DNA from: Clostridia bacterium | Lineage (GTDB): Bacteria > Bacillota > Clostridia > Christensenellales > Aristaeellaceae | Reading direction: 5' to 3' | Assembly: GCA_017433405.1 (NCBI GenBank) | Contig: JAFRHH010000039.1 | Location: 1-52,194 of the forward strand | Length of the DNA stretch: 52,194 nucleotides | Shown here: piece by piece, positions 31,293 through 49,471 of the stretch | Numbering within the stretch: the first letter of the stretch is position 1 | Layout: each line of letters opens with the position of its first letter | The notes under the pieces: model-generated | The model's input: the letters and a program-made list of their open reading frames with translations, nothing else | Database searches by the model: none | Told to the model about the DNA's origin: nothing | Program-made: the position numbers and the translations under genes

Positions 31293-31316
31293 GAGTATCT
31301 CTTCCCTTTTGCTCAA

Positions 31317-31859: not shown

Positions 31860-31860
31860 C

Positions 31861-34000: not shown

Positions 34001-34582
34001 TCACCGGCTCACATAAGCCTTGTTAACAAAGCCTACCATCTCTGTTATCGGGTCTTCCACCTGATACCAGTTTCCCATTTCAGCCAGAACCCGGACCTGA
34101 CTTCCGGAAGGATAGGCTTTCTGAAGCGTTGCCTTCTTGGACGGCGCCCAGCGGACGTTTGCAACCCCCTTGCTGTTCTGTGCCGCCGTCAGGGTTACCG
34201 TATATGGTGTCACAAACCGGGCTGACTGGAAAATGCTGTTATAATCCGGCTCCGTATTTGTTGATGGTTTCGGATTGGGAGACGGTGGAACGTAAGGCCC
34301 CGGATAGGTCCGGCTGGTCAGCGCAGCCTGCACGAATCCGCCGCTGCTCACCTGGAGCCATCCTGGCACGGTCTCGCCGATCACTTCGATCGGATTTCCG
34401 TAAGGAATCCTGTCAATAATCCAGTAATCCTTGCCCGCACCCTCCCGAACGTTCAGTGCCTTCCCGTTTCCACAGTGGGAATACACCACATAAGATGCGC
34501 TGGCCGATGCCGGGAATACGAACTGAAACATCACCGTAGCCAGCATCAGAACCGTAAGCAATGATAAAATCCGCTTTTTCAT
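34001..34582 (-). CDS. Secreted protein with two SH3b domains
   Basis: A 193-residue protein with a signal peptide (MKKRILSLLTVLMLATVMFQ...ASA) and two bacterial SH3 domains. The first (about 31-95) has KALNVREGAGKDYWIIDRIP; the second (about 125-193) has GVANVRWAPSKKATLQKAYP and ends GFVNKAYVSR. They are joined by a proline-rich linker (PPSPNPKPSTNTEPDY). SH3b domains commonly bind peptidoglycan cross-bridges. No catalytic domain is attached, so it may be a wall-binding effector or adaptor. It belongs to the unit of the double-glycine SH3 peptide, which carries a third SH3 domain. Confidence 0.82.
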   Translation of the reverse strand: MKKRILSLLTVLMLATVMFQFVFPASASASYVVYSHCGNGKALNVREGAGKDYWIIDRIPYGNPIEVIGETVPGWLQVSSGGFVQAALTSRTYPGPYVPPSPNPKPSTNTEPDYNSIFQSARFVTPYTVTLTAAQNSKGVANVRWAPSKKATLQKAYPSGSQVRVLAEMGNWYQVEDPITEMVGFVNKAYVSR

Positions 34583-34637: not shown

Positions 34638-35300
34638 TCAGACACCCAGTGTCACATTCGCGATACTCAGGACAGAAGTATTCCCCTCGAGATCCCGGTA
34701 CAGGTAAACGATGACCCATGTTGTCCCCTTGTTGATCTCACTGGCCCGGCTAAGAACCGCGTAGTTGGTTCCCGCAACCACCTGAGTGCCGAGAACAGCC
34801 ACCGGCGTGTATGCAACGGTGATGGTTCCGGTCTGATAGCTGTCCATTGCCTGCCAGAACATGTTGTTGATCTCTTCGGTAACCGTCTGGTCATCCGCAA
34901 CGCTCCAGCCTCCGGCGGAAATACCGGTTTCCGGGGCTTCCGCAGTTTCGTCCTCTCCTTCCGGTTCAATGGACATGTACATTGTCAGCGTCATCCCGTT
35001 ATAATCGCCGCTGAACTGATGAACTTCTTCATTCCACTTGAGCGTTATTGTTTCACCGTCCGCTGTCAGGGCCAGGGTTTCTCCGTCAAATGTCCAGGTT
35101 CCTTTTTTGCTTTCATCCTTATCCATGATTTCGAAGGTGTTGTCCTCATAGATGAAAACGGTCTGCTCGGCAATGGCGCTGTCACCAAAGGCATAGAACA
35201 GCTTCCAGTCGCTGATCAGGAAATTGTTCTCCTCCGCCTGCACGCAGGTCAGACCAAGAAAAAGTACAAGGGCCAGCATGAGTGACAGAAGTTTACGCAT
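34638..35300 (-). CDS. Secreted protein with lipocalin-like and cystatin-like domains
   Basis: A 220-residue protein: signal peptide (MRKLLSLMLALVLFLGLTCV, cut near VQA), then a beta-rich lipocalin-like part (about 28-112, DNTFEIMDKDESKKGTWTFD), an acidic linker and a domain from about 128 with cystatin hallmarks. These are GGWSV at its start (the N-terminal glycine), TVAYTPVAVLG, the inhibitory-loop pattern QVVAG (173-177) followed by TNYAVLSRAS, and WVIVYLYRDLEGN. Cystatins inhibit papain-type cysteine proteases; whether this one does is inference. It is the second gene of the unit from promoter A, directly after the double-glycine SH3 peptide. Confidence 0.72.
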   Translation of the reverse strand: MRKLLSLMLALVLFLGLTCVQAEENNFLISDWKLFYAFGDSAIAEQTVFIYEDNTFEIMDKDESKKGTWTFDGETLALTADGETITLKWNEEVHQFSGDYNGMTLTMYMSIEPEGEDETAEAPETGISAGGWSVADDQTVTEEINNMFWQAMDSYQTGTITVAYTPVAVLGTQVVAGTNYAVLSRASEINKGTTWVIVYLYRDLEGNTSVLSIANVTLGV

Positions 35301-35334: not shown

Positions 35335-35613
35335 TTACCGAGGCAGTCCGACAATGGAGGCGGCAACCCATCCGGTTTTGCCGTTTACCGATACTTCTAC
35401 AAAATTGCGTCCGGAAACGGGGTCATATACCACCTGATCCGTAATCGTGTCCACCTGCGTTCCGTTCGACAGGGAAGCAATCTGCGGGTTTCCTTTTCCG
35501 GGACCGCTCCGCAGCGCTGCTTTCAGTCCGGACACACCGGTGTTGACTGTGCGCCATACGCCGCCTGTGACGTTTTCCATTTCGCTCGGATTCAGTTCTT
35601 TCATTTCTTCCAT
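35335..35613 (-). CDS. SH3-domain peptide with a double-glycine (bacteriocin-type) leader
   Basis: A 92-residue protein with a bipartite structure. Residues 1-18, MEEMKELNPSEMENVTGG, form a double-glycine leader (EL.. .EME.V.GG) of the kind removed by C39 peptidase-containing ABC exporters of bacteriocins and signal peptides. Residues 19-92 look like an SH3b domain (ALRSGPGKGNPQIASLSNGT, GKTGWVAASIVGLPR). The frame extends upstream to 35730, but ATG 35613 has GGAGGAG at perfect distance and starts the leader. It is first behind LytTR promoter A, so it heads the unit. No C39 exporter is visible in the window. It may be a secreted wall-binding bacteriocin or a signal, or the leader may serve another exporter. 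Confidence 0.78.
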   Translation of the reverse strand: MEEMKELNPSEMENVTGGVWRTVNTGVSGLKAALRSGPGKGNPQIASLSNGTQVDTITDQVVYDPVSGRNFVEVSVNGKTGWVAASIVGLPR

Positions 35614-35772: not shown

Positions 35773-35842
35773 ATTTTAGCATAGAGAAGCGCGCGGAAGG
35801 TCATCTTCCGGGCTGAACGGTCGTTTTCCGGACCTGAGCGGT
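35773..35842 (-). promoter_or_regulatory. LytTR-type promoter A
   Basis: Minus strand: ACCGCTCAG (35834-35842), 12 bases, ACCGTTCAG (35813-35821), 34 bases, extended -10 TGCTAAAAT (TAAAAT 35773-35778). Between the repeats and the -10 lies the palindrome CGGAAG-N5-CTTCCG (35794-35810). It drives the double-glycine SH3 peptide and three following genes. Confidence 0.78.
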
Positions 35843-35849
35843 CAGCCTT

Positions 35850-36704
35850 TTATCCCAGATATATTCCGGGTCCGAAAATGAAAATCTCCACCAGAACCAG
35901 AAGGATTCCCAGGGCCAGCAGAACCCAGTTCGGCGCTGGCGGAAGCCTGTACAGAAACCGGCTCTTCTTCGGCGGGAACACATTCATCACGCCGGTGAAC
36001 ATGAAGCCCCAGAAGAACGGGATCCACATGACGTTGAAGAGGAAGCAGACACCCCAGTTCAGATATCCGTCCTTCATGGCCGGAGAAAGGCCTGAGCAGA
36101 TCATTCCGACCGTAAATCCGACAATGAGGACAACCAGGTGTAGCCGGAAGGCAACTTGAAGCCGTTCTTTCTTATTGTCCTTGTCTTCAATAAAGTAATA
36201 GGACATGTGGTTGAGGATGAAGAAAAGCGCCATGATTCCACCGCATCCGAGAACTGACAGGATAATGCGCAGCACGGCCACCAGATCCGGCACATCGCTG
36301 ATGCGATCATAGACGTTCCCCCAGTCGCCCGCGCCGAAAAGACCGCCGATCAGAAAATACCCAATGCCCTGGACGAACTGCGCGCCCATCAGCTGGGTCA
36401 GGAACAGCCGCGTCATGGGTTTCATGGTTTTTGACTTCAGCAGAATGATGAGCAGGATCATGGCGATCAGCGCGTTGATGATGGACGCGCTGCCTCCCGC
36501 GACCATGATCCGGTCAAACACGGAAAGGCTCGCCCAATCCGCCACCGTGGCATCCTCCGCTCCTGCAGAATAATACAGCAGTTTGCTCCCGTAGATCATA
36601 TCAGTCAGCAGATGCAGCAGCTCATGACCGGGGACAGTGACAAAGCAGGCGATCATGGCGGTGGCGATACAGTTTACCAGGGAAAAATCCTTTTGTTTCC
36701 TCAT
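35850..36704 (-). CDS. HEXXH-containing polytopic membrane protein (M50-like)
   Basis: A 284-residue integral membrane protein with about seven helices. The first helix contains VPGHELLHLLTDMIYGSKLL, with His27-Glu28 and His31 forming an HEXXH zinc motif inside or at the edge of the membrane, as in M50/site-2-protease-like families. A second ligand motif (NPDG-like) was not found with certainty, though GDWGNVYD is a candidate. ATG 36704 with GGTGAGG is chosen over GTG 36716. It is cotranscribed with the 51-residue two-helix protein from LytTR promoter B. It may process or protect against the secreted products of the regulon; that is inference. Confidence 0.65.
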   Translation of the reverse strand: MRKQKDFSLVNCIATAMIACFVTVPGHELLHLLTDMIYGSKLLYYSAGAEDATVADWASLSVFDRIMVAGGSASIINALIAMILLIILLKSKTMKPMTRLFLTQLMGAQFVQGIGYFLIGGLFGAGDWGNVYDRISDVPDLVAVLRIILSVLGCGGIMALFFILNHMSYYFIEDKDNKKERLQVAFRLHLVVLIVGFTVGMICSGLSPAMKDGYLNWGVCFLFNVMWIPFFWGFMFTGVMNVFPPKKSRFLYRLPPAPNWVLLALGILLVLVEIFIFGPGIYLG

Positions 36705-36768
36705 GAAAAACCTCACCTGAAACAGATCTAAAAACGCCCCCTGTCATGTCTGACAGAGAGCAGGAAGA

Positions 36769-36924
36769 TCACTTTTTGTTCACGACACTCAGTACGGCGA
36801 TGATAATCCCGCCGATCACGACAGCGATCCAACTCTTGGACCAGTCGTTCGCCAGCAGGCCCCAGACGACCATAGCGCCTACGGATATCATAGAAATAGC
36901 AGGGATCAGTTTTTTGTTGTCCAT
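36769..36924 (-). CDS. Two-helix small membrane protein
   Basis: A 51-residue protein with two predicted membrane helices: LIPAISMISVGAMVVWGLLA and, after the short loop NDWSKSW, IAVVIGGIIIAVLSVV, with lysines at both ends. ATG 36924 is preceded by AAAGGAG; the longer frame to 36999 crosses the promoter. It is the first gene behind LytTR promoter B and is followed after 64 bases by the HELLH protein. Small proteins of this shape near peptide genes are often immunity or accessory proteins, but I recognise no family. Confidence 0.72.
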   Translation of the reverse strand: MDNKKLIPAISMISVGAMVVWGLLANDWSKSWIAVVIGGIIIAVLSVVNKK

Positions 36925-36968
36925 GGAACGATTCTCCTTTCGTACAGCTTTTCCAACTGTTTGACGAC

Positions 36969-37037
36969 AATATAGCATGAAAACAGCCCGGAAGATCATC
37001 TTCCGGTCTGAACGGTCGTTTTGGGGGTTTAAACGGT
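36969..37037 (-). promoter_or_regulatory. LytTR-type promoter B
   Basis: Minus strand: ACCGTTTAA (37029-37037), 12 bases, ACCGTTCAG (37008-37016), 33 bases, extended -10 TGCTATATT (TATATT 36969-36974). The perfect 19-base palindrome CCGGAAGATCATCTTCCGG (36988-37006) fills the -35 zone. It drives the two-helix protein and the HELLH protein. Confidence 0.82.
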
Positions 37038-37083
37038 CAGTCAGTATTCCCTTTGCGTTTCCATTTTTTCAGATCTTCATTCA
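36975..37083. repeat. 109-base direct repeat, left copy
   Basis: About 93% identical to 42240-42348, without gaps by eye. It includes LytTR promoter B and, beyond it, codons reading EDLKKWKRK...TD-stop, the last 14 or so residues of a DUF3021 gene. The intact DUF3021 gene ends at the right copy, so this side is a duplicate with a gene remnant. The two copies flank the five-gene secreted cassette. Confidence 0.85.
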
Positions 37084-37123
37084 ATATTCTTTACCCCTTG
37101 CTGGATGGGTAACCCTGGATATG

Positions 37124-38776
37124 TCAGTCGTCCTTGTATTTTTCCAGTGATTTGTCGAGTTGCTTCCTAAACTCCCGCTCAATCTCGCTTTCGAAATACA
37201 GGGGATCCTTGGAAAACTGCCCGCTGGGATGGATGCCGTTTTCCAGGCTCTCGATTCCCGGATTGTTGCCGGGCACAATGATGAATCCGGTTCCCTTGAT
37301 GGATTTATATACCGTATGTTCTTCCACCCGGGTTTTGCCGCACCGTTTGCAGGTAATCGTCGTTGTTCGGACCACCGGCCTCACAATCGTTCCATTTTTC
37401 AGTTTTTGAAGGTCAAGCTGTTTTTCCTTGGTGACAGTATCGTTGTCGTGCTCTACCTTCTCAAAAATGACACCTTCGTTCCACGGTGTATCGCAGTATT
37501 TGCATCGTTTTTCCCACCATCCCATCTCGCCGCATTTGGCTTGCTGGATAACGTGCACCACAAATATATGCTGCTTATAGGTGTTTTTGGATTTCAGGGG
37601 TGTCACCCTCGTAGCGTCGCAGCGGAAGCAGTATTCATGCTTTTCCCCGTCCTCCAGGCAGGTCGGTTCCTTTCGCAGGATCTCATCCTCATACCACTCA
37701 TGTCCCAGCGGATCCGCTAAATCATAATTGCCGAATATGCCGCAGAACAGGCAGCGCTCACCATTCTTTTTGCCCGGCTCGGTACAGGTGGGCTCCACAT
37801 CCCGGCTGTCATCCCTCACATAGCTGTGATGGCGGGTATAGGACAGCCGCAGTGTCGCGCCGCACTCGCAGGTTCCGCCGATGATCACCGGATCGTTCTC
37901 ATCCTCGCATGTTCCGTTTGCAATCGTATATTCCGACCAGCTGTGGGAGGTTGCGTTGATCGTGTCCGCCGCGCCGCACCGGATGCAGGACGCCGCGTGA
38001 TCCCCCTCTTCCCGGCGGCTGACTTTTTTACTCCCGTGGGCCACCTTCAGCGGTCCGGAAAAATCATGTCCCATTGCCTGATACTGTTTCAGGGCGGGAT
38101 ATCGCTCCACCCATGTCATGGACGCTTCCAGGCTCAGATGCTCCCCGCACAGAGGACAGTCAAAGCTGACGCTGCCGTCCCGCAGGCAGGTGGGTTCCCG
38201 GTCCACCTGCAGGTTGCTGATCTCATGGGAATGGCTGACGTCCCGCTCGCCGCACACGGTGCAGGTCTGCCAGTGGCCGATGATATCGTGCTCATAGGCG
38301 CCACCGTATTTGTGATGAGCAAAACATTCCGCCGGATCTCCTTCCCTGGGCGCGGAAGTCCTCTCTTCTGTCCGGCCGCACACGCAGCTCCGCTGCAGCA
38401 CAGCGTTCCGCGTACAGGTTGCCTTGGTCACCACCGCAATCTGATTAAAAGTATGAACTTCCGGCGGAAAAAGCTTCCCGCAGTCCAGGCATTTTTCCCA
38501 GTGAAACTGCTCGGTGCCCATGCCCCAGCTCCGGTGTTCATGCTTGCATTCCGATTCTTCCGTCACGGTTTCCCCGCCGCTGCCTCTCTGCACGTCCACC
38601 AGCTGCCAGAGCTCATACCGGCCGTCCCCCAGGGGAACCACCCGGAACGTATTGCCGTTCTGGTCAGTATAGGTTTTCCCCGACCCGTCCTCCGCCCGGG
38701 CGTTGACCCCGGCGGCGATCATCAAAGTCATCGCCAAAAGCAAGAGCGGCAGGATTTTTATCCATTTTCTTCTCAT
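37124..38776 (-). CDS. Large secreted CxxC-repeat protein
   Basis: A 550-residue protein with a signal peptide (MRRKWIKILPLLLLAMTLMI...ARA) and many short zinc-ribbon-like repeats. Typical units read EPTCLEDGEKHEYCFRCDAT, EPTCTEPGKKNGERCLFCG and RSCVCGRTEERTSA, about 10 in all, with more than 30 cysteines. Such 'xxxTCTExGxxxYxCxxCG' repeats occur in large extracellular proteins of gut Firmicutes and probably form disulfide- or metal-stabilised rods. Near the N-terminus the stretch TFRVVPLGDGRYELWQLVDV matches a similar stretch in the 173-residue protein of the same operon. No anchor is seen at the highly charged C-terminus. Last gene of the unit from promoter D. Confidence 0.75.
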   Translation of the reverse strand: MRRKWIKILPLLLLAMTLMIAAGVNARAEDGSGKTYTDQNGNTFRVVPLGDGRYELWQLVDVQRGSGGETVTEESECKHEHRSWGMGTEQFHWEKCLDCGKLFPPEVHTFNQIAVVTKATCTRNAVLQRSCVCGRTEERTSAPREGDPAECFAHHKYGGAYEHDIIGHWQTCTVCGERDVSHSHEISNLQVDREPTCLRDGSVSFDCPLCGEHLSLEASMTWVERYPALKQYQAMGHDFSGPLKVAHGSKKVSRREEGDHAASCIRCGAADTINATSHSWSEYTIANGTCEDENDPVIIGGTCECGATLRLSYTRHHSYVRDDSRDVEPTCTEPGKKNGERCLFCGIFGNYDLADPLGHEWYEDEILRKEPTCLEDGEKHEYCFRCDATRVTPLKSKNTYKQHIFVVHVIQQAKCGEMGWWEKRCKYCDTPWNEGVIFEKVEHDNDTVTKEKQLDLQKLKNGTIVRPVVRTTTITCKRCGKTRVEEHTVYKSIKGTGFIIVPGNNPGIESLENGIHPSGQFSKDPLYFESEIEREFRKQLDKSLEKYKDD

Positions 38777-38789
38777 TTTCGGATCCTCC

Positions 38790-40007
38790 TCAGTAATCGG
38801 TCATGCCATCGCTCCGGGTATAATACCAGCTGACATAGCCGTTCACATCCGCCGTTCCGTCCTCGTCGGCCGCACCGCTCCGGATGATATGTGCCGGGTT
38901 GGCGCCGTCCAGGATCCGTCCCACGGCGCCTCCGGCCACGTTTGCTTCCGCGATGTTTCCTTCCGCCATACCCCCCAGCACGACGCCCAGGGCTTCTTCG
39001 TCAAAAGCGGTATCCACAACCGCCACTGAGACATTGCCGCCGACATTGGCGGTTCCGTAATATCCCATACCGCCGGCAAACACGCCGCCCAGCAGGGTGA
39101 TTTTCCCTTCCGCGTAAAAGCGGATCCGGCTACCGTGCAGTTCTACGGAAACATTCCCGCCCACGTTCGCGGTGGGATGCCCGCAGTCTTCCCCGGTGCG
39201 GAAGGCCTCCCCGCCGCCGCACACCTGGTAAACGTTCCGTCCTTCGGCGTACAGCGTCACGTCACCGTCCACGTTCGCCTGTGCCGTATATCCGGAAATG
39301 GATTCCGCCAGGCCGCCGCCCACCAGCGTATCTGTGTAGCTGATGGTCATGCCCTTCAGATTCAGGGTCACGCTGCCGCCCACGTCCGCCACCGCGTCCG
39401 CCGTTTTGGAGCTGGCCAGGCCGCCACCAACCATGTCCAGGGACCAGTTGTTGCCCGTGGACTGAATCAGCACATCCCCGGTAATGCTGCCGTTGTATCC
39501 GCCGCCGTAGACATACATCATCTGGCTTTCTTCCAGCGTGATGGACACATTGCCGATCACATCTCCTCCGTATCCGCCGCCGAACAGGAAGGATATGTTC
39601 GGAAACGCCTTCCGCACGTCCGTTCCCCGGACAGTAATGCTCACGTCCGCCGTGACATCTGCATCCAGACTGCCGCCGAATACCTTGCTGTTCCCGGATG
39701 CATACACATACCGGGTCTCCCCGTTCTCTTCCCAGCTGATGACGGATCCGGTCCCGGGTTTTTTATTCGGGGAAAACCCGTTCTGCAGGCCTTTTTGGAC
39801 TTCCTCGTCATGCACCCATCCGGCAGTATCCGCCTTCGGTTCCCAGATGGTAATCGGCGTGCCGTTGGCAAAAAAGCATTCCCGGGTGACGCTGTCGCTT
39901 TCCACAATGGGCAATACCGTCCCGGCAGGCTTGCAGGCCTCTCCTGCCGCCCATCCGCCAGTCAGCAGCCCGGCAGTCAGGAGGATCATACCGATGATTT
40001 TTTTCAC
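38790..40007 (-). CDS. Secreted glycine-rich VGGNV-repeat protein
   Basis: A 405-residue protein with a signal peptide (VKKIIGMILLTAGLLTGGWA, cut near AAGEA). The mature part has repeated units such as ANVGGNVSVELHGSRIRF, ANVGGNVSVAVVDTAFDE, VDGDVTLYAEGRNVY and VGGSVTLNLKGMTISY, alternating with VFGGS/YVYGGGYN/VGGGLA/VCGGGEA turns. This pattern suggests a beta-solenoid. The frame is open to 40181, but GTG 40007, lying 22 bases after the previous stop and just before the signal sequence, is preferred. The C-terminus ends YVSWYYTRSDGMTDY without an anchor. Fourth gene of the promoter D unit. Function unknown; adhesin or surface-layer-like roles are possible. Confidence 0.72.
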   Translation of the reverse strand: MKKIIGMILLTAGLLTGGWAAGEACKPAGTVLPIVESDSVTRECFFANGTPITIWEPKADTAGWVHDEEVQKGLQNGFSPNKKPGTGSVISWEENGETRYVYASGNSKVFGGSLDADVTADVSITVRGTDVRKAFPNISFLFGGGYGGDVIGNVSITLEESQMMYVYGGGYNGSITGDVLIQSTGNNWSLDMVGGGLASSKTADAVADVGGSVTLNLKGMTISYTDTLVGGGLAESISGYTAQANVDGDVTLYAEGRNVYQVCGGGEAFRTGEDCGHPTANVGGNVSVELHGSRIRFYAEGKITLLGGVFAGGMGYYGTANVGGNVSVAVVDTAFDEEALGVVLGGMAEGNIAEANVAGGAVGRILDGANPAHIIRSGAADEDGTADVNGYVSWYYTRSDGMTDY

Positions 40008-40029
40008 TTTTCCTTCGCTCCTTCCGCCA

Positions 40030-40551
40030 TCACCGGCCACTGCCCCGGTTATCCTGGATATAAACCTGATTGAATCCCCATTCGATGGAAGACACCGGGA
40101 TAATGCCCCGGATAAGCCTCGGAAGCCGCCTGCGGGGCTGTTTCTTTTTCCCGCCATCTTCCACCATGCCGGTTTGTTCATCGCTGCCCTTCAGCGTCCC
40201 GGTTTCCGGTTTGCTGACCGTCTTCAGTTTCGGATCTTCCGTCCCGGGTTTTGACTTTTTCCACTGGACATTGTAAGGAGTATCGCCGATGGTTGTTTTG
40301 CCATTTTCCTCTTTTTCCTGAATGCCGATCAGCTCCATCGCTTCGTCCGGACTGCCGAATATGCCGATGAACTGCCACACTTCCAGGCTGCCATCCTGCT
40401 TTTGCACCTGTTTGTAGGCGTTCCCTGCCGCGTCGTTCAGCGTCTCCTCCGGCCAGTCCTCCGCCATCGCAGCCCCCTGTCCCGCGCCGGCAATGAGCAG
40501 AAGTGCCATCAGTCCCGCTGTCAGGGTTTTTGTTCTAAAATGTCGCCTCAT
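40030..40551 (-). CDS. Small secreted protein sharing an N-terminal motif with the CxxC-repeat protein
   Basis: A 173-residue protein with a signal peptide (MRRHFRTKTLTAGLMALLLI...AMA). The mature start EDWPEETLNDAAGNAYKQVQ and KQDGSLEVWQFIGIF correspond to the YTDQNGNTFRVV...DGRYELWQLV segment of the 550-residue protein downstream, which suggests a shared small domain. The remainder is low-complexity and charged (PKLKTVSKPETGTLKGSDEQ, KKKQPRRRLPRLIRG). Middle gene of the promoter D unit, 34 bases after the preceding gene. I recognise no named family. Confidence 0.65.
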   Translation of the reverse strand: MRRHFRTKTLTAGLMALLLIAGAGQGAAMAEDWPEETLNDAAGNAYKQVQKQDGSLEVWQFIGIFGSPDEAMELIGIQEKEENGKTTIGDTPYNVQWKKSKPGTEDPKLKTVSKPETGTLKGSDEQTGMVEDGGKKKQPRRRLPRLIRGIIPVSSIEWGFNQVYIQDNRGSGR

Positions 40552-40585
40552 CCGTGTTCATCCTCCTGCCTGATTTCCACCGGAA

Positions 40586-41083
40586 TTACGCCCCCTCCGT
40601 CACATCCGCGCTTTCCATGTCCGCCGTATCCTGCTGCAGGATCGCAGCCAGCTGCTCCGCCGCTTCCACAGTGGAAATATCAGTCATCGTTTCCCCGCCG
40701 TCAAAGGAAAAGCTGACGCAGAAATCCACGCCGTCATTGCACATGTCCTTCAGCTCCGCAAACCGGCTCACCAGGAAGCCCATGATCATGACGCCATTTT
40801 CGTAGCCGGTGGTCCATGTGTAGTACCTGTTCAGCCCTTCCGCATCCGCGCCAATCAGCACGGCCTGGGTCATATCATTGTCCGGATCAAACAGGAAGAT
40901 CGCCAAGCAGATCTTTTCCGCCTGCGCGTCTTCCGCCATTTCATAAACCGCCCAGGGTTCCCCCAGCACCTGCTCATCGCAATACAATCCGTACAGATTT
41001 TCAAATCCGGTTTCAGCCCAGGCGGAAGCTTCCATGCCAAGCACGCAAATCCCGATCATCATCCACGCGATCCATTTCCTCAT
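40586..41083 (-). CDS. Secreted protein of unknown function
   Basis: A 165-residue protein with a signal peptide (MRKWIAWMMIGICVLGMEAS, cut near AWA). The mature part is acidic (GLYCDEQVLGEPWAVYEMAE, YYTWTTGYENGVMIMGFLVS, VDFCVSFSFDGGETMTDIS) and has three cysteines outside the signal peptide (in LYCDE, KICLA/MCND and DFCVS regions). No family is recognised. It is the second gene of the promoter D unit, 48 bases after the PDZ-protein gene. Confidence 0.65.
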   Translation of the reverse strand: MRKWIAWMMIGICVLGMEASAWAETGFENLYGLYCDEQVLGEPWAVYEMAEDAQAEKICLAIFLFDPDNDMTQAVLIGADAEGLNRYYTWTTGYENGVMIMGFLVSRFAELKDMCNDGVDFCVSFSFDGGETMTDISTVEAAEQLAAILQQDTADMESADVTEGA

Positions 41084-41131
41084 TGTCTGATCCTCCTTTT
41101 TCAGTGCCGACTGTTCCTGCCTGAGTTTATG

Positions 41132-41995
41132 TCAGTTTTCGGTACCTGCTTCACTTTCCGCTGTCAGGGTCAGCTCCCAAAGCTCATTGTCCCGCTGCAG
41201 CATCATCGTGACCGGATTTCCCGCCGCCAGTTCCGCGCAAGCATGGGTCAGCATATACAGCTCTTTCGAATATTCCATATCGTTTATGCGGAAGAGCAGA
41301 TCCCGGGGCATCAGCCCGATCTCATACGCAGGGGAACCTTTCTCCACATCCACGATCAACAGTCCGCCGGAAGTAAATCCGTATGCCTCCGCCAGTTCAC
41401 CGGGCACCGAAATCACCGTCATCCCAAGATGCACCTTTGCCGCCTTTGCCAGCACCACATCATCCGGAGCCTCATAGGGTTCCCCGTTTTCCGGTCCGGT
41501 TGTGTAGGCGTTCATCTGTGTGGAGTACCAGCAAAGCTGATTGTCCGGCAGTTCCAGGACTGTCCGCTCCGCAACCGCCCCGTCTTCCGCGTACACCGTC
41601 GTTTCAATTCTGTCGATTGCGATTTCCATCCTGGTGGCCGATGGATATGCGTTTCCCAGTCCAAAGGAAATCGTCGCTTCCTTTCCTGGATCAGCCGCCG
41701 CGGAAGTGTGCAGTACCCGTTCCTCCAGCAGGATTTCTTCCACGTATCCCCCGCCGATGAGCACCGGTTCTCCTTCCGGATCCAGCGGATTGATCCGGAT
41801 TTCCGCGCCAGTCACCGTCATGCTGCCGGTATTGGTCCATTTCACCGTCAGAATTCCCGTTTCCGGATCATACTTCGCATCCCGCATCAGCAACAGCCGG
41901 CCCGCCGGTGCGGTGTCATCCGCCGCCGCGGGCCAAGCGAAAGCAATGATCATCAGGCACAGCAGCACAGCCGCCAGCCCTGACAGTCTTCTCAC
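41132..41995 (-). CDS. Secreted PDZ-domain protein
   Basis: A 287-residue protein with a signal peptide (MRRLSGLAAVLLCLMIIAFA...AAA). The middle (about 28-150) looks like a beta-sandwich (YDPETGILTVKWTNTGSMTV). The C-terminal 100 residues are a PDZ domain: LGMTVISVPGELAEAYGF, GGLLIVDVEKGSPAYEIGL, RDLLFRINDMEY. There is no protease domain, so it probably tethers or presents C-termini of other secreted proteins. It is the first gene of the five-gene unit behind LytTR promoter D, in a position to act with the four secreted proteins that follow. Confidence 0.8.
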   Translation of the reverse strand: MRRLSGLAAVLLCLMIIAFAWPAAADDTAPAGRLLLMRDAKYDPETGILTVKWTNTGSMTVTGAEIRINPLDPEGEPVLIGGGYVEEILLEERVLHTSAAADPGKEATISFGLGNAYPSATRMEIAIDRIETTVYAEDGAVAERTVLELPDNQLCWYSTQMNAYTTGPENGEPYEAPDDVVLAKAAKVHLGMTVISVPGELAEAYGFTSGGLLIVDVEKGSPAYEIGLMPRDLLFRINDMEYSKELYMLTHACAELAAGNPVTMMLQRDNELWELTLTAESEAGTEN

Positions 41996-42059
41996 AATGT
42001 ACCATCCCCCTCCCGGACCTCAGTCGTCTGATGTTGTGCGTTCTCAATTGATTACGTAT

Positions 42060-42128
42060 CTTATACCACAAATCTGCCCCAAATAACCGGAATGCGGGCT
42101 AAGCGGTCGATTTGGATGTCCGGGCGGT
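42060..42128 (-). promoter_or_regulatory. LytTR-type promoter D
   Basis: Minus strand: ACCGCCCGG (42120-42128), 12 bases, ACCGCTTAG (42099-42107), 33 bases, extended -10 TGGTATAAG (TATAAG 42060-42065). No palindrome in the -35 zone, unlike A, B and C. It drives the PDZ gene and four more. Confidence 0.75.
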
Positions 42129-42233
42129 CATCCGGTTCAAATCTTCTGATTGCACGTACCAATTATTTTGGATTATTATACCTCAAGTCGTTTGCTGGCT
42201 TGGGGTTTCTCATTTGTATGGTGGCAAAGTCGG
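42129..42233. other. Gene-free stretch between LytTR promoters D and C
   Basis: About 100 bases of A/T-rich DNA. A TATAAT occurs on the minus strand at 42174-42179 without a good -35. No open frame longer than about 15 codons with a ribosome binding site is seen on either strand. Together with promoters C and D this makes up the 306-base gap 41996-42301. Confidence 0.5.
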
Positions 42234-42302
42234 GAGATAGCACGAAAACAGCCCGGAAGATCATCTTCCGGGCTGAACGGTCGTTTTTGGGGTTTAAACG
42301 GT
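42234..42302 (-). promoter_or_regulatory. LytTR-type promoter C (orphan copy)
   Basis: Minus strand: ACCGTTTAA (42294-42302, starting at the DUF3021 stop codon), 12 bases, ACCGTTCAG (42273-42281), 33 bases, TGCTATCTC (TATCTC 42234-42239). The -10 is degenerate and no gene follows before promoter D, so this is probably the relic from which the 36975 copy arose, or its duplicate. Confidence 0.65.
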
Positions 42303-42348
42303 CAGTCGGTATCCCTTTTGCGTTTCCACTTTTTCAGATCTTCATTCA
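42240..42348. repeat. 109-base direct repeat, right copy
   Basis: Matches 36975-37083 at about 93%. Here the sequence is continuous with the intact DUF3021 gene, whose last 15 codons lie inside the repeat. Confidence 0.85.
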
Positions 42349-42724
42349 TTTCACAGATCTTTCGCCTGTAGGAAAGATACTGGAAAAGCCAGATGAACAC
42401 ATATCCGACAGCCATGACAGCCACAACAATCCAGAAAACGGGTTCATCCAGCCTGAACCAGCCCATGGAAATCACCAGGAGAAAATACAGGACGAGAAGA
42501 AGCAGAAAATGAGTCGCTGTCGCTCGGGCAATGCTCCATCTTTCAATTTCATATACCACGGAGCTGCCCATCGCCACAGCGCCGTAGATCCCGCCCAGGA
42601 GAATGTGTGGAAGATCCTTTAGCGCCAGTCCATTCGATGATCCGGTCAGGATAAACACGATACCAATGAGGCAACCTAAAACAAAACCGACTATGCCCAA
42701 CAGAGCAGCCTTTTTCCACAGCAT
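42302..42724 (-). CDS. DUF3021 membrane protein, partner of the LytTR regulator
   Basis: A 140-residue protein with four predicted membrane helices (from MLWKKAALLGIVGFVLGCLI to PVFWIVVAVMAVGYVFIWLF) and a basic cytoplasmic tail (SYRRKICEMNEDLKKWKRKR). It matches DUF3021 proteins, which in Firmicutes accompany LytTR regulators lacking receiver domains. In the related HdrRM/BrsRM systems of Streptococcus mutans the membrane protein holds the regulator inactive. ATG 42724 with AGGAGGG is chosen over 42751. It follows the LytTR gene after 28 bases. Role as membrane inhibitor or sensor is inferred from those systems. Confidence 0.87.
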   Translation of the reverse strand: MLWKKAALLGIVGFVLGCLIGIVFILTGSSNGLALKDLPHILLGGIYGAVAMGSSVVYEIERWSIARATATHFLLLLVLYFLLVISMGWFRLDEPVFWIVVAVMAVGYVFIWLFQYLSYRRKICEMNEDLKKWKRKRDTD

Positions 42725-42752
42725 GGGATCATCCCTCCTTTCCCTGATCAAA

Positions 42753-43211
42753 TCAGTTCAGCGCCTGTTGAATCGCCCGCACATACCTTCGGGCCGCCCA
42801 GGTGACGCTTCCGTCATCAAAGACAATATGCACGGTTCCGGCGATGCTGAAATCGAACCGGGCTATTTTACGGATGTTGACAATCTCGAAGCGGCTGATC
42901 CGGATGAAGCGTTCCCCGTTCAGAACGGTTTCAAGCCAGGACAGGGTTTTTCGGGAATCATATGTCCCGTCGGCGGTATGGATCCTGACCTTCCGTGCTT
43001 CCACGTAGACACGGATGATATCCCGCTGGCTCAGGAGCTCCATTTCGCCGTCCTGGTATCCGGCAATCAACGGATAGCTGCTGTCCGTACATGTCTCAAC
43101 GGCGTGAACAATATCTTCCACTCTCTGTGTCTTCTGATCCGTATGGATCACAATGACCGGATCGTGGCATTGCCGATCAATCTGGATCCTGATCTCCACG
43201 GGATTCTTCAT
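42753..43211 (-). CDS. LytTR-family transcription regulator without receiver domain
   Basis: A 152-residue protein. The first 45 residues (VEIRIQIDRQCHDPVIVIHT) are an extra N-terminal part. About 50-150 is a LytTR DNA-binding domain: DIIRVYVEARKVRIHTADGT, YDSRKTLSWLETVLNGERFI, RISRFEIVNIRKIARFDFS. LytTR domains bind two 9-base direct repeats about one helical turn plus 12 bases apart; five such pairs lie within 10 kb. ATG 43211 follows GAGGTGGAG. With DUF3021 it forms a LytTR regulatory system; its own promoter has TATAAT but no repeat pair, so it is probably not strongly self-activated. I propose it controls promoters A, B, D and E. Confidence 0.88.
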   Translation of the reverse strand: MKNPVEIRIQIDRQCHDPVIVIHTDQKTQRVEDIVHAVETCTDSSYPLIAGYQDGEMELLSQRDIIRVYVEARKVRIHTADGTYDSRKTLSWLETVLNGERFIRISRFEIVNIRKIARFDFSIAGTVHIVFDDGSVTWAARRYVRAIQQALN

Positions 43212-43277
43212 GCTCCACCTCTTCTCAAGTGCAACACGTGATGCTCTGTTCCTTCGGGCAACTTCGGAAACAGCGCG

Positions 43278-43283
43278 ATTATA
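43278..43283 (-). promoter_or_regulatory. -10 box of the LytTR-DUF3021 promoter
   Basis: Minus strand TGCTATAAT (extended -10) 67 bases before the LytTR ATG. The -35 zone reads only TTCTCA. A single ACCGCTTCT half-site lies nearby but is not at the spacing of promoters A-E. Confidence 0.55.
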
Positions 43284-43335
43284 GCATGTTTTTCTGTGTA
43301 TGAGAAGCGGTTATATTATCGGATAAACGTCATTG

Positions 43336-45654
43336 TTATCTCTGAATAAAGGTCAGGGTGCTGATGATCTCCTGCGCTTCCGCCTCCGCTGTTTCACCAT
43401 CCAGCCAGAAGGCGATTTCCACATACTGATTCCCATCTTCAAAGAGATAGTTCAGGGTCGTGTACTCCTTCCCCTCATAGGTTTCCCGTGCGCGATACCA
43501 GGCCGCGTCGATCCCGTTGATCCTCTCACCGGTGACCACTTCAAAGGCGTTATATTCCGCGGCTTTCTGCTCCGCATACTCGACAAGCTTTTCCGGCCGG
43601 CCTTCCTTGGTGAACTGATAAACGTCGAAGTCAAGCAGCGTCTCGTCGCTGCGCATGTAGGCGACCATATCGTCCCTGATATCCTCCTCAGTCCTGCTTC
43701 CTTCCGCAAAGCTGTCCGGGATCGTGACGGTATAGATGGAAGTCCCCAGCCGGTATACGCGGGTTCCGGTCTTCTGCCCGATTTCAGGCCGCGGGATATA
43801 ATCTCTCTCGTTGAAGTAAAAGGATTTGCCGTCAAATACGATCCCTGTCACGGTGGCCTTCGGCATATTATCCGGCTGTTCCCCGAACACCTGGGTCATG
43901 GTCAGCTCCTCCGCGAAAGAAACCTTGTACTGGAAATCCCCGTAAATCATGAAGATATGGAGTCCGGTCTCATCGCTGTGATATCCGTTATACTCCCACC
44001 CCGCGTCCAGCAGATCCTGCCCGGTTTTGCCGATCCATTGATCCAGTTCTTCCCGGGGCATGGCCAACGTGCTCAGATCAATGATTGTCGTAATCTCACA
44101 CGGAGCGAGAATCGCGTTAATCTGTTCCGCCCGGTCCTCCGCCATGAAATCGACCGCATTCATTGCGTCACACAGCTCTTTGGAAAACGCCGCGTTTACC
44201 AGCCATTCTGTTCCGGCATACCTGAAGATCAGGGTATAGTTGTTCTCGTCCCAGGAGGCTTCCCTGGATTCAGTCTCAAGGGTTAACACGTCAGCCAGCG
44301 TTTTCCAGGCGGAAGGATCCGCCTCGACAGGCGGCTCGGTTTCCTTTGAGGCGCTTCCTGTATTCTCCTGCCCCTGCTGAGGCATCATCAGCGTGGTGAT
44401 CAGTTCGGCGACTTCCGGCGCGGCTTCAGACAGTTTCATCATCAGCGGACCGAAGCCATTCATCAGGAAATCCATAAGCAGGCCGGTAGCCGCGTCGCTT
44501 TCCCCGCTCACCATATCTTCAAGAGGCATCACGGTCTTCCCGTCCGCATCCAGGGAAAGGGTGCGAGCCCCATCTGCGGAAACCGTGACGAAAACGGAAA
44601 TCAACGGTTTGTCGGTATTCTGGAAATAAATGTCGCAGCGATATGCGGCAATCTCTCCCTCTTCCGCTGTAAAATCAATCACAAGATCCGCTTCGCTCTG
44701 CTTGTATTCCAGGCGAATGCCTCCGTTTGTAAGGATCAAACCGGCTACGACGCCATGCTCATGGTCCAGAAAAGTCATCGTGTAGTTCTTTTCATCCTTG
44801 CACAGCATGGAATACTCGTAAGTGGGATTCTCTTTTCCCGCATAGACTGCTCTTCCGGTTACATAGAACGGGATCGAATCCTTGCCGTTCTGATAATACT
44901 CCGCAGTTACCTCATCCGGAAAGTTCTTTTCATATTCATCCAGGGCTTTCCTCAGGTTTTCCGGTGTAAGCGCTTCGCCGCCGGCCTGCGGCAATCCCTG
45001 AAGAGAGGCCAGCACTGCTTCATCCCTCAGCAGATCCTCTTTCAGCCCATGGAAGGCCTCCTTCACCCTGGGAATATCGACGGTTACGGGAACCATCGAA
45101 TCAAAAGAATAACCGTCGAACTGATACTCGCCTTGAACAGATTCTCCCGGGATGGCAGATTCCGTGCAAACCTGCATAAAAGACGTGATATGGGTCGGCA
45201 GAGAGGTTGGCATGATGCTCATGGTACCCTCACCGGCTTCGCTGACAGTCGCGCCGGGCATATTGCTCATGAATGTTTCCATCATCTGGTTCAATGTGTC
45301 CTGCTTAACGGTCAGCAGATAATTGGGGAACAGCGTGCCAGCCAGCCGGACGCCCTGCTCATCGGCACCAAACCCCAGGGAAAGAACTTGATCCCCATCC
45401 AGTTCAAGGTCAATCTGTGCCCCGTCCTGCACGGAAATAACCCGCACACCCAGAATACTGATCAAGGAAAGAATGGGATCAATGAGCGATTTCTGCTCTT
45501 CCGGGATTCCGAAACCTGCCAGAATCTTCTTTACCGCCTCCTGATCAGCGGAAGCCCTTACCGTCACGGTTCCAGCTGACGCAAAGGCGCAGGTCATGAT
45601 CATCATGATCGTCAGAACGATCGCCGTCATCCTTTTCAGACTGTACTTTTTCAT
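43336..45654 (-). CDS. Large secreted protein of unknown function
   Basis: A 772-residue protein with a signal peptide (MKKYSLKRMTAIVLTIMMIM...ASA). The first 400 residues are beta-rich with repeated strand motifs (AQIDLELDGDQVLSLGFGAD, VQGEYQFDGYSFDSMVPVTV, ARTLSLDADGKTVMPLEDMV). A linker of Gln/Glu/Pro follows (about 425-450). The C-terminal part (about 640-772) includes GTSIYTVTIPDSFAEGSRTE and TTLNYLFEDGNQYVEIAFWL and ends in EIISTLTFIQR, similar in pattern to the small secreted protein at 33412-33972. No anchor or catalytic motif is recognised. It stands alone behind LytTR promoter E, with GGAGGTG before the ATG at 45654. Confidence 0.75.
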   Translation of the reverse strand: MKKYSLKRMTAIVLTIMMIMTCAFASAGTVTVRASADQEAVKKILAGFGIPEEQKSLIDPILSLISILGVRVISVQDGAQIDLELDGDQVLSLGFGADEQGVRLAGTLFPNYLLTVKQDTLNQMMETFMSNMPGATVSEAGEGTMSIMPTSLPTHITSFMQVCTESAIPGESVQGEYQFDGYSFDSMVPVTVDIPRVKEAFHGLKEDLLRDEAVLASLQGLPQAGGEALTPENLRKALDEYEKNFPDEVTAEYYQNGKDSIPFYVTGRAVYAGKENPTYEYSMLCKDEKNYTMTFLDHEHGVVAGLILTNGGIRLEYKQSEADLVIDFTAEEGEIAAYRCDIYFQNTDKPLISVFVTVSADGARTLSLDADGKTVMPLEDMVSGESDAATGLLMDFLMNGFGPLMMKLSEAAPEVAELITTLMMPQQGQENTGSASKETEPPVEADPSAWKTLADVLTLETESREASWDENNYTLIFRYAGTEWLVNAAFSKELCDAMNAVDFMAEDRAEQINAILAPCEITTIIDLSTLAMPREELDQWIGKTGQDLLDAGWEYNGYHSDETGLHIFMIYGDFQYKVSFAEELTMTQVFGEQPDNMPKATVTGIVFDGKSFYFNERDYIPRPEIGQKTGTRVYRLGTSIYTVTIPDSFAEGSRTEEDIRDDMVAYMRSDETLLDFDVYQFTKEGRPEKLVEYAEQKAAEYNAFEVVTGERINGIDAAWYRARETYEGKEYTTLNYLFEDGNQYVEIAFWLDGETAEAEAQEIISTLTFIQR

Positions 45655-45685
45655 GCCACACCTCCATATGTTATTGTTTGTCCGT

Positions 45686-45754
45686 TTTATACCATATGAG
45701 AGGCCTGACAGGATGCTTTTTCGGCTGAACGGTCATTCTGGACAGTCAAGCGGC
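45686..45754 (-). promoter_or_regulatory. LytTR-type promoter E
   Basis: Minus strand: GCCGCTTGA (45746-45754), 12 bases, ACCGTTCAG (45725-45733), 33 bases, extended -10 TGGTATAAA (TATAAA 45686-45691). The outer repeat is the least conserved. It drives the 772-residue secreted protein. Confidence 0.75.
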
Positions 45755-46888: not shown

Positions 46889-47206
46889 TTATCCTTTTGA
46901 TGTGGCTGCTGCCTGTGATGACCCTTTGGGCTTAAATTGCACATCAAGAACCATTCCCATGCCTTCAGCCAGCCTTTGAAGCAGCTTGATGCTTGGATTT
47001 CGTGTGCCGTTTTCCAGACGGCTGATTTCCGTCTGTGCAATACCAGTTTTCTCTGCCAGCTGTTTCTGAGTCAGGTTCTGGGATGTACGTGCTTCAATCA
47101 TCGCGCGAATTACATTCATTTCCGGCTGGATTTCCTCATACGCTTTCGCAAATACAGGATCCTTCATCTTTTCTTTCTTATAATCCTTCAGATTCATTAC
47201 ACTCAC
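46889..47206 (-). CDS. higA: XRE-family antitoxin (HigA-like)
   Basis: A 105-residue helix-turn-helix protein. RTSQNLTQKQLAEKTGIAQT and EISRLENGTRNPSIKLLQRL are the HTH_3 core, preceded by an N-terminal helix region (LKDYKKEKMKDPVFAKAYEE) that in such systems contacts the toxin. The start may be GTG 47206, overlapping the toxin stop by four bases, or ATG 47197. The toxin-first order is that of higBA. The perfect palindrome in the upstream promoter is its likely binding site. Confidence 0.88.
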   Translation of the reverse strand: MSVMNLKDYKKEKMKDPVFAKAYEEIQPEMNVIRAMIEARTSQNLTQKQLAEKTGIAQTEISRLENGTRNPSIKLLQRLAEGMGMVLDVQFKPKGSSQAAATSKG

Positions 47207-47580
47207 CTGCTTCCTTTCTTGCTTGTTACTGCGGCCTGTTGTCTTCTTAAGAAATCAGCCCTGTATTTCTTTGCCAGTTCGATCTGCGCTCTGGGTGTTT
47301 TCTGCGTCTTTTTGATAAATCCATGAGTAATGACGATTCGACCTTCGACATAGAAGAAGAACAGCGCACGAGAAATGTTGGAGCCTTGAACAGCTCTCAG
47401 TTCAAATATTCCATCCTCAAGCGGAGCGGAGTATGGTTCGCGCAGCGAATACCCTTTCTCTTCCAGAATCTCCATCAGGCCAACCATTTTCGCATTCATT
47501 TTAGGCTCAAGAGAATCAAGGAATTCCTGTGTTGGAGTTCTGCCATCTTCTGTATCGTAAAACTCTACTTGAAATTGCAT
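47203..47580 (-). CDS. higB: RelE/HigB-family toxin
   Basis: A 125-residue toxin of the phage-derived Gp49/HigB group. FQVEFYDTEDGRTPTQEFLD (P..eFl..L), LREPYSAPLEDGIFELRAVQ (kpl.dGlyElR), SRALFFFYVEGRIVITHGFI and KKTQKTPRAQIELAKKYRAD (FxKKtqktP..ei..A) are complete family motifs. It is a ribosome-dependent mRNA interferase in related systems. It lies first in the unit, followed by its antitoxin gene. Confidence 0.9.
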   Translation of the reverse strand: MQFQVEFYDTEDGRTPTQEFLDSLEPKMNAKMVGLMEILEEKGYSLREPYSAPLEDGIFELRAVQGSNISRALFFFYVEGRIVITHGFIKKTQKTPRAQIELAKKYRADFLRRQQAAVTSKKGSR

Positions 47581-49096: not shown

Positions 49097-49471
49097 TTAT
49101 TCGTGGTCTCTGACCCACTGAAGCAGTTCTTCATATTTCATGCTGCCGTCTGCGACAGCAAGCCCGATATGAACCAGTTCCGCATCCGTGCAATCAAGGC
49201 GGATACCGTTCATTTCAAGGAAAATAAGCATAATATATGTACCAATTCGCTTGTTTCCATCGACAAATGCATGATTGGAAATCAGCGCGTACCCCAGCCG
49301 GGCTCCCTTTTCTTCTTTTGATGGATAGAATTCCTGACTTCCGAAGCCTGCGAACGCACTCTCAAGTGCAGAATCCAGCAATCCTTCATCCCGTACACCG
49401 ACGCTTCCGCCGGTTGCTTCTGCAAGCAGCTGGTGCAGAAGTTTCACTTTCTCTTTGGAGAATTTAATCAT
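49097..49471 (-). CDS. doc: Doc-type Fic-domain toxin
   Basis: A 124-residue protein of the death-on-curing family. The Fic motif is HAFVDGNKR (67-75), with the short Doc form; VRDEGLLDSALESAFAGFGS precedes it. Phage P1 Doc phosphorylates EF-Tu and stops translation. The active-site residues are intact. The start overlaps the antitoxin stop by four bases. Confidence 0.92.
   Translation of the reverse strand: MIKFSKEKVKLLHQLLAEATGGSVGVRDEGLLDSALESAFAGFGSQEFYPSKEEKGARLGYALISNHAFVDGNKRIGTYIMLIFLEMNGIRLDCTDAELVHIGLAVADGSMKYEELLQWVRDHE

What the first reader, a model, noticed from the sequence alone, without database searches (positions are those of the whole stretch)
35773..45754. A LytTR/DUF3021 regulatory system with five matching promoter sites over secreted-protein genes
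On the minus strand, promoters A (35773-35842), B (36969-37037), C (42234-42302), D (42060-42128) and E (45686-45754) all have two ACCGYTYAG-like 9-mers with exactly 12 bases between them. The inner repeat is 33 bases (34 in A) from an extended TGN-TATAAT-like -10. A LytTR protein and its DUF3021 membrane partner are encoded in the middle. Known LytTR sites (ComE, BlpR, AgrA) are 9-mer direct repeats about 12 bases apart, and receiver-less LytTR systems with membrane inhibitors (HdrRM, BrsRM) control bacteriocin genes. Here the proposed targets are SH3, cystatin-like, PDZ, CxxC-repeat and VGGNV-repeat secreted proteins, a set I have not seen described.
Basis: partly seen in the sequence, partly recalled or inferred. 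Interest (0 to 1): 0.92.

Follow-up and report, generated by a model that had tools for sequence, protein, structure and literature searches.

The report
LytTR switch with portable output promoters
A gut-type Clostridia bacterium carries a membrane-held gene switch of a known kind (a LytTR Regulatory System) that appears to be wired to several promoters for secreted proteins, including a probable protease inhibitor, rather than mainly to its own promoter.

Summary
The five sites are real and non-random. All have two ACCGYTYAG-like 9-mers exactly 12 bp apart and a -10 position at 33/34 bp. Of 24 genome-wide hits with up to 3 mismatches, these five alone score 4 or more of 7 for an extended -10 in register. 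Across 45 genomes of the genus, exact sites occur in 7 of 8 genomes that carry this LytTR and 0 of 37 others.

The architecture is that of LytTR Regulatory Systems (LRS; Zou 2018, PMC6193735): receiver-less LytTR, DUF3021 membrane partner, 9-12-9 repeats. So the switch is a known kind.

The wiring differs. In a sister clade the repeat sits at the lytTR promoter (10 of 10 loci). Here it is absent or weak there in 8 of 9, and lies directly after DUF3021 in 7 of 9, on the stop codon in 6. B and C are copies of one 112-nt cassette flanking a 5-kb operon; C's -10 looks decayed. Binding and inhibition are untested.

The parts
42753..43211 (-). LytTR regulator, 152 aa, no receiver domain
   Evidence: PF04397 E 1.5e-20 at residues 57-151, no other Pfam match; 8 clade orthologues at 46-82% identity in alignment A2
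42302..42724 (-). DUF3021 membrane partner, 140 aa, probable inhibitor of LytTR
   Evidence: PF11457 E 5.5e-24; inhibitor role inferred from LRS literature (PMC6193735)
43278..43283 (-). -10 (TGC-TATAAT) of the lytTR-DUF3021 pair; no strong direct repeat in register upstream
   Evidence: sequence; (score 2.6; 59 of 1000 background windows as high)
35813..35842 (-). Direct repeat A (0 mismatches)
35773..35778 (-). -10 of A (TAAAAT, 34 bp from the repeat)
37008..37037 (-). Direct repeat B (1 mismatch)
36969..36974 (-). -10 of B (TATATT, 33 bp)
42273..42302 (-). Direct repeat C (1 mismatch); its first base is the last base of the DUF3021 stop codon
42234..42239 (-). -10 position of C, TATCTC, probably decayed
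   Evidence: score 4 of 7
42099..42128 (-). Direct repeat D (2 mismatches)
42060..42065 (-). -10 of D (TATAAG, 33 bp)
45725..45754 (-). Direct repeat E (3 mismatches)
45686..45691 (-). -10 of E (TATAAA, 33 bp)
42252..42272 (-). Terminator-like hairpin between repeat C and its -10 position
   Evidence: -14.6 kcal/mol, z -3.7, 0 of 200 shuffles as good
36988..37006 (-). Terminator-like hairpin between repeat B and its -10
   Evidence: -12.5 kcal/mol, z -3.6, 1 of 200 shuffles as good
35794..35810 (-). Weaker hairpin between repeat A and its -10
   Evidence: -9.0 kcal/mol for the 35-nt stretch, z -1.5, 15 of 200 shuffles as good
42237..42348 (-). 112-nt cassette, copy at DUF3021: its last 47 nt + repeat C + hairpin
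36972..37083 (-). 112-nt cassette, second copy (94%): DUF3021 remnant + repeat B + hairpin + first half of the -10
43336..45654 (-). 772-aa protein with an apparent signal peptide behind E, upstream of lytTR
   Evidence: no Pfam match
41132..41995 (-). Secreted PDZ-like protein, first gene of the operon behind D
   Evidence: PDZ_2 E 1.8e-5, 25.3 bits, under the curated cut-off 27
40586..41083 (-). 165-aa secreted protein of the PDZ operon
   Evidence: homologues in L061, L063
40030..40551 (-). 173-aa secreted protein of the PDZ operon
   Evidence: homologues in L061, L063
38790..40007 (-). VGGNV-repeat protein; GTG start at 40007 is more likely than the ORF start 40181
   Evidence: sequence; homologues in L061, L063, L150
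37124..38776 (-). CxxC-repeat secreted protein, last gene of the PDZ operon
   Evidence: homologues in L061, L063
36769..36924 (-). 51-aa membrane protein behind B
   Evidence: homologues in L061, L062, L064, L066, L150, L152; repeat 102-133 nt ahead in B, L064, L066, L152
35850..36704 (-). 284-aa membrane protein with an HELLH motif
   Evidence: sequence; no Pfam match; no homologue in the 22 loci
35335..35613 (-). SH3_3 protein with double-glycine leader MEEMKELNPSEMENVTGG, behind A
   Evidence: SH3_3 E 1.5e-8; Bacteriocin_IIc 17.3 bits, under the cut-off 27.1; GG leader in 16 of 16 family members read
34638..35300 (-). Secreted protein: N-terminal beta domain + C-terminal cystatin-like domain
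34001..34582 (-). Secreted protein with SH3 domains, next gene after the cystatin-like gene
   Evidence: SH3_3 E 1.7e-18; no site of its own

Best explanation
This is a LytTR Regulatory System (LRS) of a distinct clade whose binding sites stand at output promoters rather than at the regulator's own promoter. Proposed mechanism: DUF3021 holds the LytTR protein inactive at the membrane (inferred from S. mutans LRS). An unknown envelope or extracellular signal relieves this. LytTR then binds the two 9-mers, two helical turns apart, and recruits RNA polymerase to mostly extended -10 promoters without a conserved -35 (site geometry shown; binding inferred). Promoters E, D, B and A then express a 772-aa secreted protein, a five-gene PDZ operon, a 51-aa membrane protein followed by a membrane protein with an HELLH motif, and a double-glycine-leader SH3 protein followed by a cystatin-like protein. 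Read-through from E over lytTR-DUF3021 may supply indirect positive feedback (inferred). The likely use is defence or competition at the cell surface (weakly supported).
For: Sites exceed chance and carry an in-register -10. In one search, 0 of 400 random 350-bp windows from eight clade II loci reach the combined score of any of A-E. Exact sites in 7 of 8 genomes with the orthologous LytTR and 0 of 37 others. Of the 62 hits with up to 1 mismatch, one search examined 35 for a -10 in register: 12 of 13 in bearing genomes and 1 of 22 in others score 4 or more (five of the 13 were added by me from stretches fetched because the hit looked good, so the first fraction is biased upward). Spacer 12 is the only enriched one of 20 tested over the window and 16 relative loci: 10 pairs with up to 1 mismatch at 12, 0 at every other spacer (the consensus came from these sites). 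Several output families recur behind such sites in relatives, also far from the locus. Geometry equals the published LRS. Clade II has the repeat at lytTR in 10 of 10 loci; in clade I, 8 of 9 score near background and one, L065, is intermediate.
Against: No binding, expression or mutant data. The repeat at lytTR that the LRS paper calls a defining feature is missing or weak here, so autoregulation is unproven. G004 carries the LytTR but has no exact site (its site at cl5 has 3 mismatches). L067 has the repeat after DUF3021 but a poor -10. One genome without the LytTR (G032) has a site with a -10 score of 5, though no gene start with a ribosome site was found within 300 nt of it. G011 has an extra cl5-like gene, an extra cystatin gene and a 51-aa gene without a site of their own. 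Most genomes are incomplete MAGs, so absence of the LytTR may be false in some. The inhibitor role of this DUF3021 and the signal are unknown.
Confidence: 0.8

Rival explanations
1. The repeats belong to another LytTR regulator of the genome, an AgrA/ComE-like response regulator on contig C60, and the local LytTR is a bystander.
For: The genome has two more LytTR proteins on C60. One looks to me like a response regulator followed by a sensor-kinase-like protein (my reading of the sequence, no domain search). A second GG-SH3 gene lies beside them.
Against: Exact sites track the clade I LytTR across 45 genomes. Sites cluster around this lytTR in relatives. On the gene's strand, no site with up to 4 mismatches and a -10 in register lies in the 3.3-kb locus L173 around the C60 GG-SH3 gene. 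The spread of the C60 regulators over the genus was not tested.
Confidence: 0.1
2. Canonical autoregulated LRS: E drives a 772-aa gene-lytTR-DUF3021 operon, so feedback is as in S. mutans and only the target list is new.
For: The 772-aa gene ends 124 nt before lytTR on the same strand. In L061b, L063 and L066 a site-driven secreted gene also precedes lytTR, and in L064 a 772-aa homologue with a weak site does.
Against: In the window lytTR has its own TATAAT without a strong repeat, and 8 of 9 clade loci score near background there. In L062 an unrelated gene precedes lytTR with no strong site within 350 bp. In L065 the 772-aa homologue is divergent.
Confidence: 0.35
3. Chance or copy artefact: repeats multiplied by local duplication without function.
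For: B and C are one duplicated cassette, and A matches that cassette at 74-75% over 73 nt.
Against: D and E are outside the cassette; sites recur at unrelated places in other genomes with conserved spacing and -10.
Confidence: 0.03

Closest known systems
LytTR Regulatory Systems (HdrRM, BrsRM and others; Zou et al. 2018, PMC6193735)
   Same: Receiver-less LytTR protein next to a small membrane protein (DUF3021 in some); 9-bp repeats 12 bp apart; about 10 bp to the -35 position and 33 to the -10, in some an extended -10; several target promoters.
   Different: No strong repeat at the regulator's own promoter; the repeat starts on the partner gene's stop codon; the -35 position is not conserved and at some sites lies inside a hairpin; the targets in the window are secreted proteins without a clear bacteriocin.
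ComE/BlpR/AgrA two-component LytTR regulators (recalled)
   Same: LytTR domain; 9-mer direct repeats about 12 bp apart.
   Different: Those have a receiver domain and a sensor kinase; the LytTR here has no receiver match and its neighbour is DUF3021.
Bacterial cystatins and stefins (Kordis and Turk 2009, PMC2784779)
   Same: N-terminal GG, QxVxG loop and fold; proposed there as inhibitors that protect bacteria from host proteases.
   Different: Here fused to an N-terminal beta domain and placed behind an LRS-type promoter; inhibition untested.
Class II bacteriocins with a double-glycine leader (Pfam PF10439)
   Same: Leader of the form xELxxxxMExVxGG; C39 exporters exist at two places in the genome.
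   Different: The mature part is an SH3 domain; the Pfam score is below the curated cut-off.

Membership tests
LytTR Regulatory System (LRS) | LytTR regulator without a receiver domain | tested here: met
   152 aa, only PF04397
LytTR Regulatory System (LRS) | Adjacent small membrane protein (DUF3021 or DUF2154 type) | tested here: met
   PF11457 E 5.5e-24, next gene
LytTR Regulatory System (LRS) | 9-12-9 direct repeats at fixed distance from the -10 | tested here: met
   At target promoters A, B, D, E
LytTR Regulatory System (LRS) | Direct repeat at the regulator operon's own promoter (positive autoregulation) | tested here: not met
   Window score 2.6, reached by 59 of 1000 background windows; 8 of 9 clade loci near background, L065 a candidate; clade II 10 of 10 positive. 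Indirect feedback from E not excluded
LytTR Regulatory System (LRS) | Membrane protein inhibits the regulator; system basally off | not testable with these tools
   needs mutants
Two-component LytTR system (ComE/BlpR/AgrA) | Receiver domain and partner histidine kinase | tested here: not met
   no receiver match in the LytTR protein; next gene is DUF3021
Cystatin | N-terminal Gly and QxVxG loop | tested here: met
   G130 G131 W132, Q173, A176, G177 invariant and V175 at 90% or more in 19 sequences
Cystatin | Cystatin fold | tested here: inconclusive
   Best profile match to a solved structure is an extracellular cystatin-like inhibitor, E 0.005; 12 of 13 matches up to E 1 are cystatin-type, none reaches 0.001. 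AlphaFold2 pLDDT 81, pTM 0.45. Foldseek best hit sialostatin L2, prob 1.00, E 2.2e-3; no hit at E 0.001; carboxylases rank 2 and 3. Favours a cystatin fold
Cystatin | Inhibits papain-like proteases | not testable with these tools
   needs assay
Class IIc bacteriocin (PF10439) | Score above the family cut-off | tested here: not met
   17.3 bits against 27.1

The most novel reading that the evidence does not exclude
A clade of LRS has given up the repeat at its own promoter and instead carries, fused to the stop codon of the inhibitor gene, a portable element (binding site, terminator of the upstream gene, -10 of the next gene). This element spreads by copying and recruits changing secreted cargo, among them a protease inhibitor and double-glycine-leader SH3 proteins, into one membrane-controlled regulon.
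Probability: 0.35. Interest if true: 0.65.

Novelty: new variant of a known kind. Interest (0 to 1): 0.5.

Why it matters
LRS are widespread, but according to the 2018 paper (PMC6193735) the only characterised examples were those of S. mutans, where known targets include bacteriocin and competence genes. Here the site sequence, spacing and cargo can be read by comparison across 45 genomes, giving a testable regulon for a DUF3021-type LRS outside streptococci. The two sister clades, one with the site at its own promoter (and, by a strict pattern, nowhere else) and one with sites at outputs, offer a natural experiment on how a self-feeding switch becomes a distributor. The hairpin-in-promoter element and its 112-nt duplication suggest how such regulons gain genes.

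Tried and rejected
Autoregulatory repeat at lytTR: searched with spacers 11-13 and a -10 in register. The window has a weak 11-spaced pair out of register. Scores for 8 of 9 clade loci are reached by 49 to 927 of 1000 background windows; L065 by 13. The background includes real sites, so its upper tail is inflated, and the matrix was trained partly on A-E and on published LRS sites. Upstream sequence was cut short by the contig end in L067 (145 nt) and L061a (268 nt).

Hairpin as a plain DUF3021 terminator: of 23 sites, 9 have a hairpin of -7.6 kcal/mol or better between repeat and -10: A, B, C, L061a, L061b, L063, L064, L066 and L152. Three of these do not directly follow DUF3021 (A, L061b, L152). 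L067 follows DUF3021 but has no hairpin, and L065 has a weak one with no same-strand gene ahead. 'Terminator of whatever gene ends just upstream' fits most but not all. RNAalifold finds little covariation (term +0.07; 2 of 6 pairs with double changes), so a conserved RNA structure is not claimed. A protein-binding palindrome was considered and not tested.

Other GG-SH3 genes of the genus as LRS targets: scanned on the gene's strand only, the 15 further loci hold no site with up to 4 mismatches and a -10 in register inside their 3-kb stretches. L161 (G004) is the second gene of an operon whose site lies just outside its stretch (L065 9483).

Mutual exclusion of clade I (8 genomes) and clade II (10 genomes): seen, too few genomes to call significant.

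A literature search for GG-leader SH3 proteins and one for bacterial or rumen cystatins listed, by title, nothing on point beyond PMC2784779.


Full report
OBSERVATION. The window search returns exactly the five sites, with 0 to 3 mismatches to ACCGYTYAG-N12-ACCGYTYAG on the minus strand, against 0.21 expected. Over the whole assembly (2.53 Mb, 92 contigs, 89% complete) there are 24 hits with up to 3 mismatches, and the reversed pattern gives 15. So the repeat alone is weak evidence for D and E. Adding the promoter settles it: the five sites score 4 to 6 (of 7) for TGN-TATAAT at 33/34 bp, the other 19 at most 3.5, although one of them scores 5.5 at 31 bp. In 400 random 350-bp windows from eight clade II loci, none reaches the combined score of any of A-E.

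FAMILY. The LytTR protein (152 aa) has only a LytTR domain and its neighbour is DUF3021. Zou et al. 2018 (PMC6193735; I saw the abstract, the outline and twelve passages) define LytTR Regulatory Systems: a LytTR regulator, a membrane inhibitor (some DUF3021), 9-bp repeats mostly 12 bp apart and mostly 10 bp before the -35. With a -35 of 6 and a spacing of 17 this gives 33 bp to the -10, as seen here.

COMPARISON. Ten other genomes carry a relative of 31-39%. Weaker matches (E 5e-9 to 7e-4) occur in both sets and elsewhere and were not studied; 27 of 45 genomes have some match. A tree of the 9 and the 10 separates them as clades I and II with full support. Exact matches to the 8-mer form of the site number 12: they fall in 7 of the 8 clade I genomes and 0 of the other 37. 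Ten of the 12 lie at the lytTR locus and two elsewhere (G024:C88, G043:C7). With up to 1 mismatch there are 62 hits, 23 in clade I genomes and 39 in others, against 16 for the reversed control. One search examined 35 of the 62 for a -10 in register: 12 of 13 in clade I genomes and 1 of 22 in others score 4 or more. The 13 include five from stretches I had fetched, four of them because the hit looked good, so the first fraction is biased upward.

Named records that match three of the relatives are MAGs from yak jejunum, goat omasum and sheep duodenum, titled 'Clostridia bacterium'.

WIRING. In clade II a repeat of the ACCACTTAT type stands directly upstream of lytTR with a -10 at 33/34 in 10 of 10 loci, two of which (G026, G038) have the same protein. 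A strict pattern written from those sites hits 9 of the 45 genomes once each, always at lytTR and nowhere else; the reversed control gives 8 hits. Looser clade II sites elsewhere were not sought. In clade I, 8 of 9 lytTR upstream regions score near background (49 to 927 of 1000 windows as high); L065 (G004) has a candidate. Instead the repeat stands directly after DUF3021 in 7 of 9 loci, and in 6 of these its first base is the last base of the DUF3021 stop codon; in L066 the reading frame runs on through it. In L061b the 51-aa gene intervenes; in L065 the site serves a divergent gene. Between repeat and -10 there is a hairpin of -7.6 kcal/mol or better at 9 of 23 sites. In the window C and B are strong (-14.6 and -12.5 kcal/mol, z below -3.5) and A is not distinguishable from shuffles (z -1.5); D and E have none.

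DUPLICATION. B and C are two copies of a 112-nt stretch, 94% identical, that includes the last 47 nt of the DUF3021 gene. In L066 the order is lytTR-DUF3021-site-51-aa gene; in L063 it is lytTR-DUF3021-site-PDZ operon. The window has both, with the PDZ operon and its own site D between the two copies and C's -10 decayed. The simplest history is insertion of the PDZ operon with duplication of the cassette (inference).

OUTPUTS. The PDZ operon stands behind a site in 3 of 3 loci that have it: window D, L061 8185(+) and L063 9160. The L061 site has a -10 with two mismatches, and in L063 no start with a ribosome site was found within 700 nt although the reading frame opens about 160 nt on. The 772-aa family has a site in the window, L061, L065 and L153 and a weak one in L064; the L061 copy at 2875-4125 has none, and the copy in G043 and weaker relatives in other genomes were not checked. 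The cystatin-like family has a site directly or at its operon's head in the window, L061, L063 (two copies), L065 and L066, but not in the second L061 copy at 4293. The 51-aa membrane protein has one directly in the window, L064, L066 and L152, in L062 at the head of its operon and a weaker one in L150; the L061 copy has none of its own. Distal sites also stand before families not seen in the window (L151, L154).

The SH3 protein behind A starts at 35613 with MEEMKELNPSEMENVTGG. All 16 family members found at E 1.2e-9 or better, in 13 of 45 genomes, have such a leader; four weaker matches were not read. C39-peptidase transporters are encoded at two other places in the genome. The cystatin reading rests on an invariant GGW and a QVVAG-type loop in 19 sequences, weak profile matches to solved structures (best E 0.005; 12 of 13 matches up to E 1 are cystatin-type, one name recalled) and fold matches (best E 2.2e-3, none at 0.001). 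Unrelated carboxylases rank second and third in the fold list.

MECHANISM. Shown: sites, spacing, -10, co-occurrence, recurring cargo. Inferred: LytTR binding, activation, restraint by DUF3021, feedback through E, function in defence. PMC2784779 (passages only) proposes that bacterial cystatins defend against host proteases. One transcriptome table (PMC11410844, one passage) shows a LytTR gene and the next-numbered DUF3021 gene falling together in another bacterium.

NOVELTY. Searches for 'LytTR Regulatory System' or DUF3021 (19 papers, all listed), BrsRM or HdrRM (25 of 33 listed) and LytTR with direct repeats, regulon or membrane inhibitor (12 of 15 listed) showed, by title and start of abstract, no paper describing a DUF3021-type LRS with such targets or with the site on the partner's stop codon. 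I opened only PMC6193735, PMC2784779 and PMC11410844, each in part. The library lacks most subscription journals. I file this as a new variant of a known kind.

Noticed in passing
window 30637-32106, 46889-47580, 49097-49710: Toxin-antitoxin type genes lie on both sides of the locus: PIN, MazE/PemK, Gp49-HTH and Phd-Fic pairs (the Phd match is just under its cut-off).
   Followed up: partly
window 35850-36704 (-): Multi-spanning membrane protein with an HELLH (HExxH) motif and no Pfam match; possible membrane metallopeptidase (motif reading is mine).
   Followed up: partly
L173 (G000:C60:21757-22029) and L026, L027: A second double-glycine-leader SH3 gene lies beside two LytTR genes and a kinase-like gene, suggesting that this peptide family is tied to LytTR signalling more widely.
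   Followed up: partly
L065 3928-4140 (-): A 70-aa double-glycine-leader peptide resembling class II bacteriocins (PF10439 24.9 bits, cut-off 27.1) about 5.5 kb from the lytTR gene of G004; no site found near it.
   Followed up: partly
L109-L137: Relatives of the cystatin-like protein occur in 36 of 45 genomes of the genus, by my count of the rows 34 of them through the C-terminal cystatin-like part; PMC2784779 called the bacterial distribution extremely limited.
   Followed up: partly
window 32468-33283 (+): PD-(D/E)XK nuclease family transposase gene next to the locus (PF12784 E 1.6e-9).
   Followed up: no
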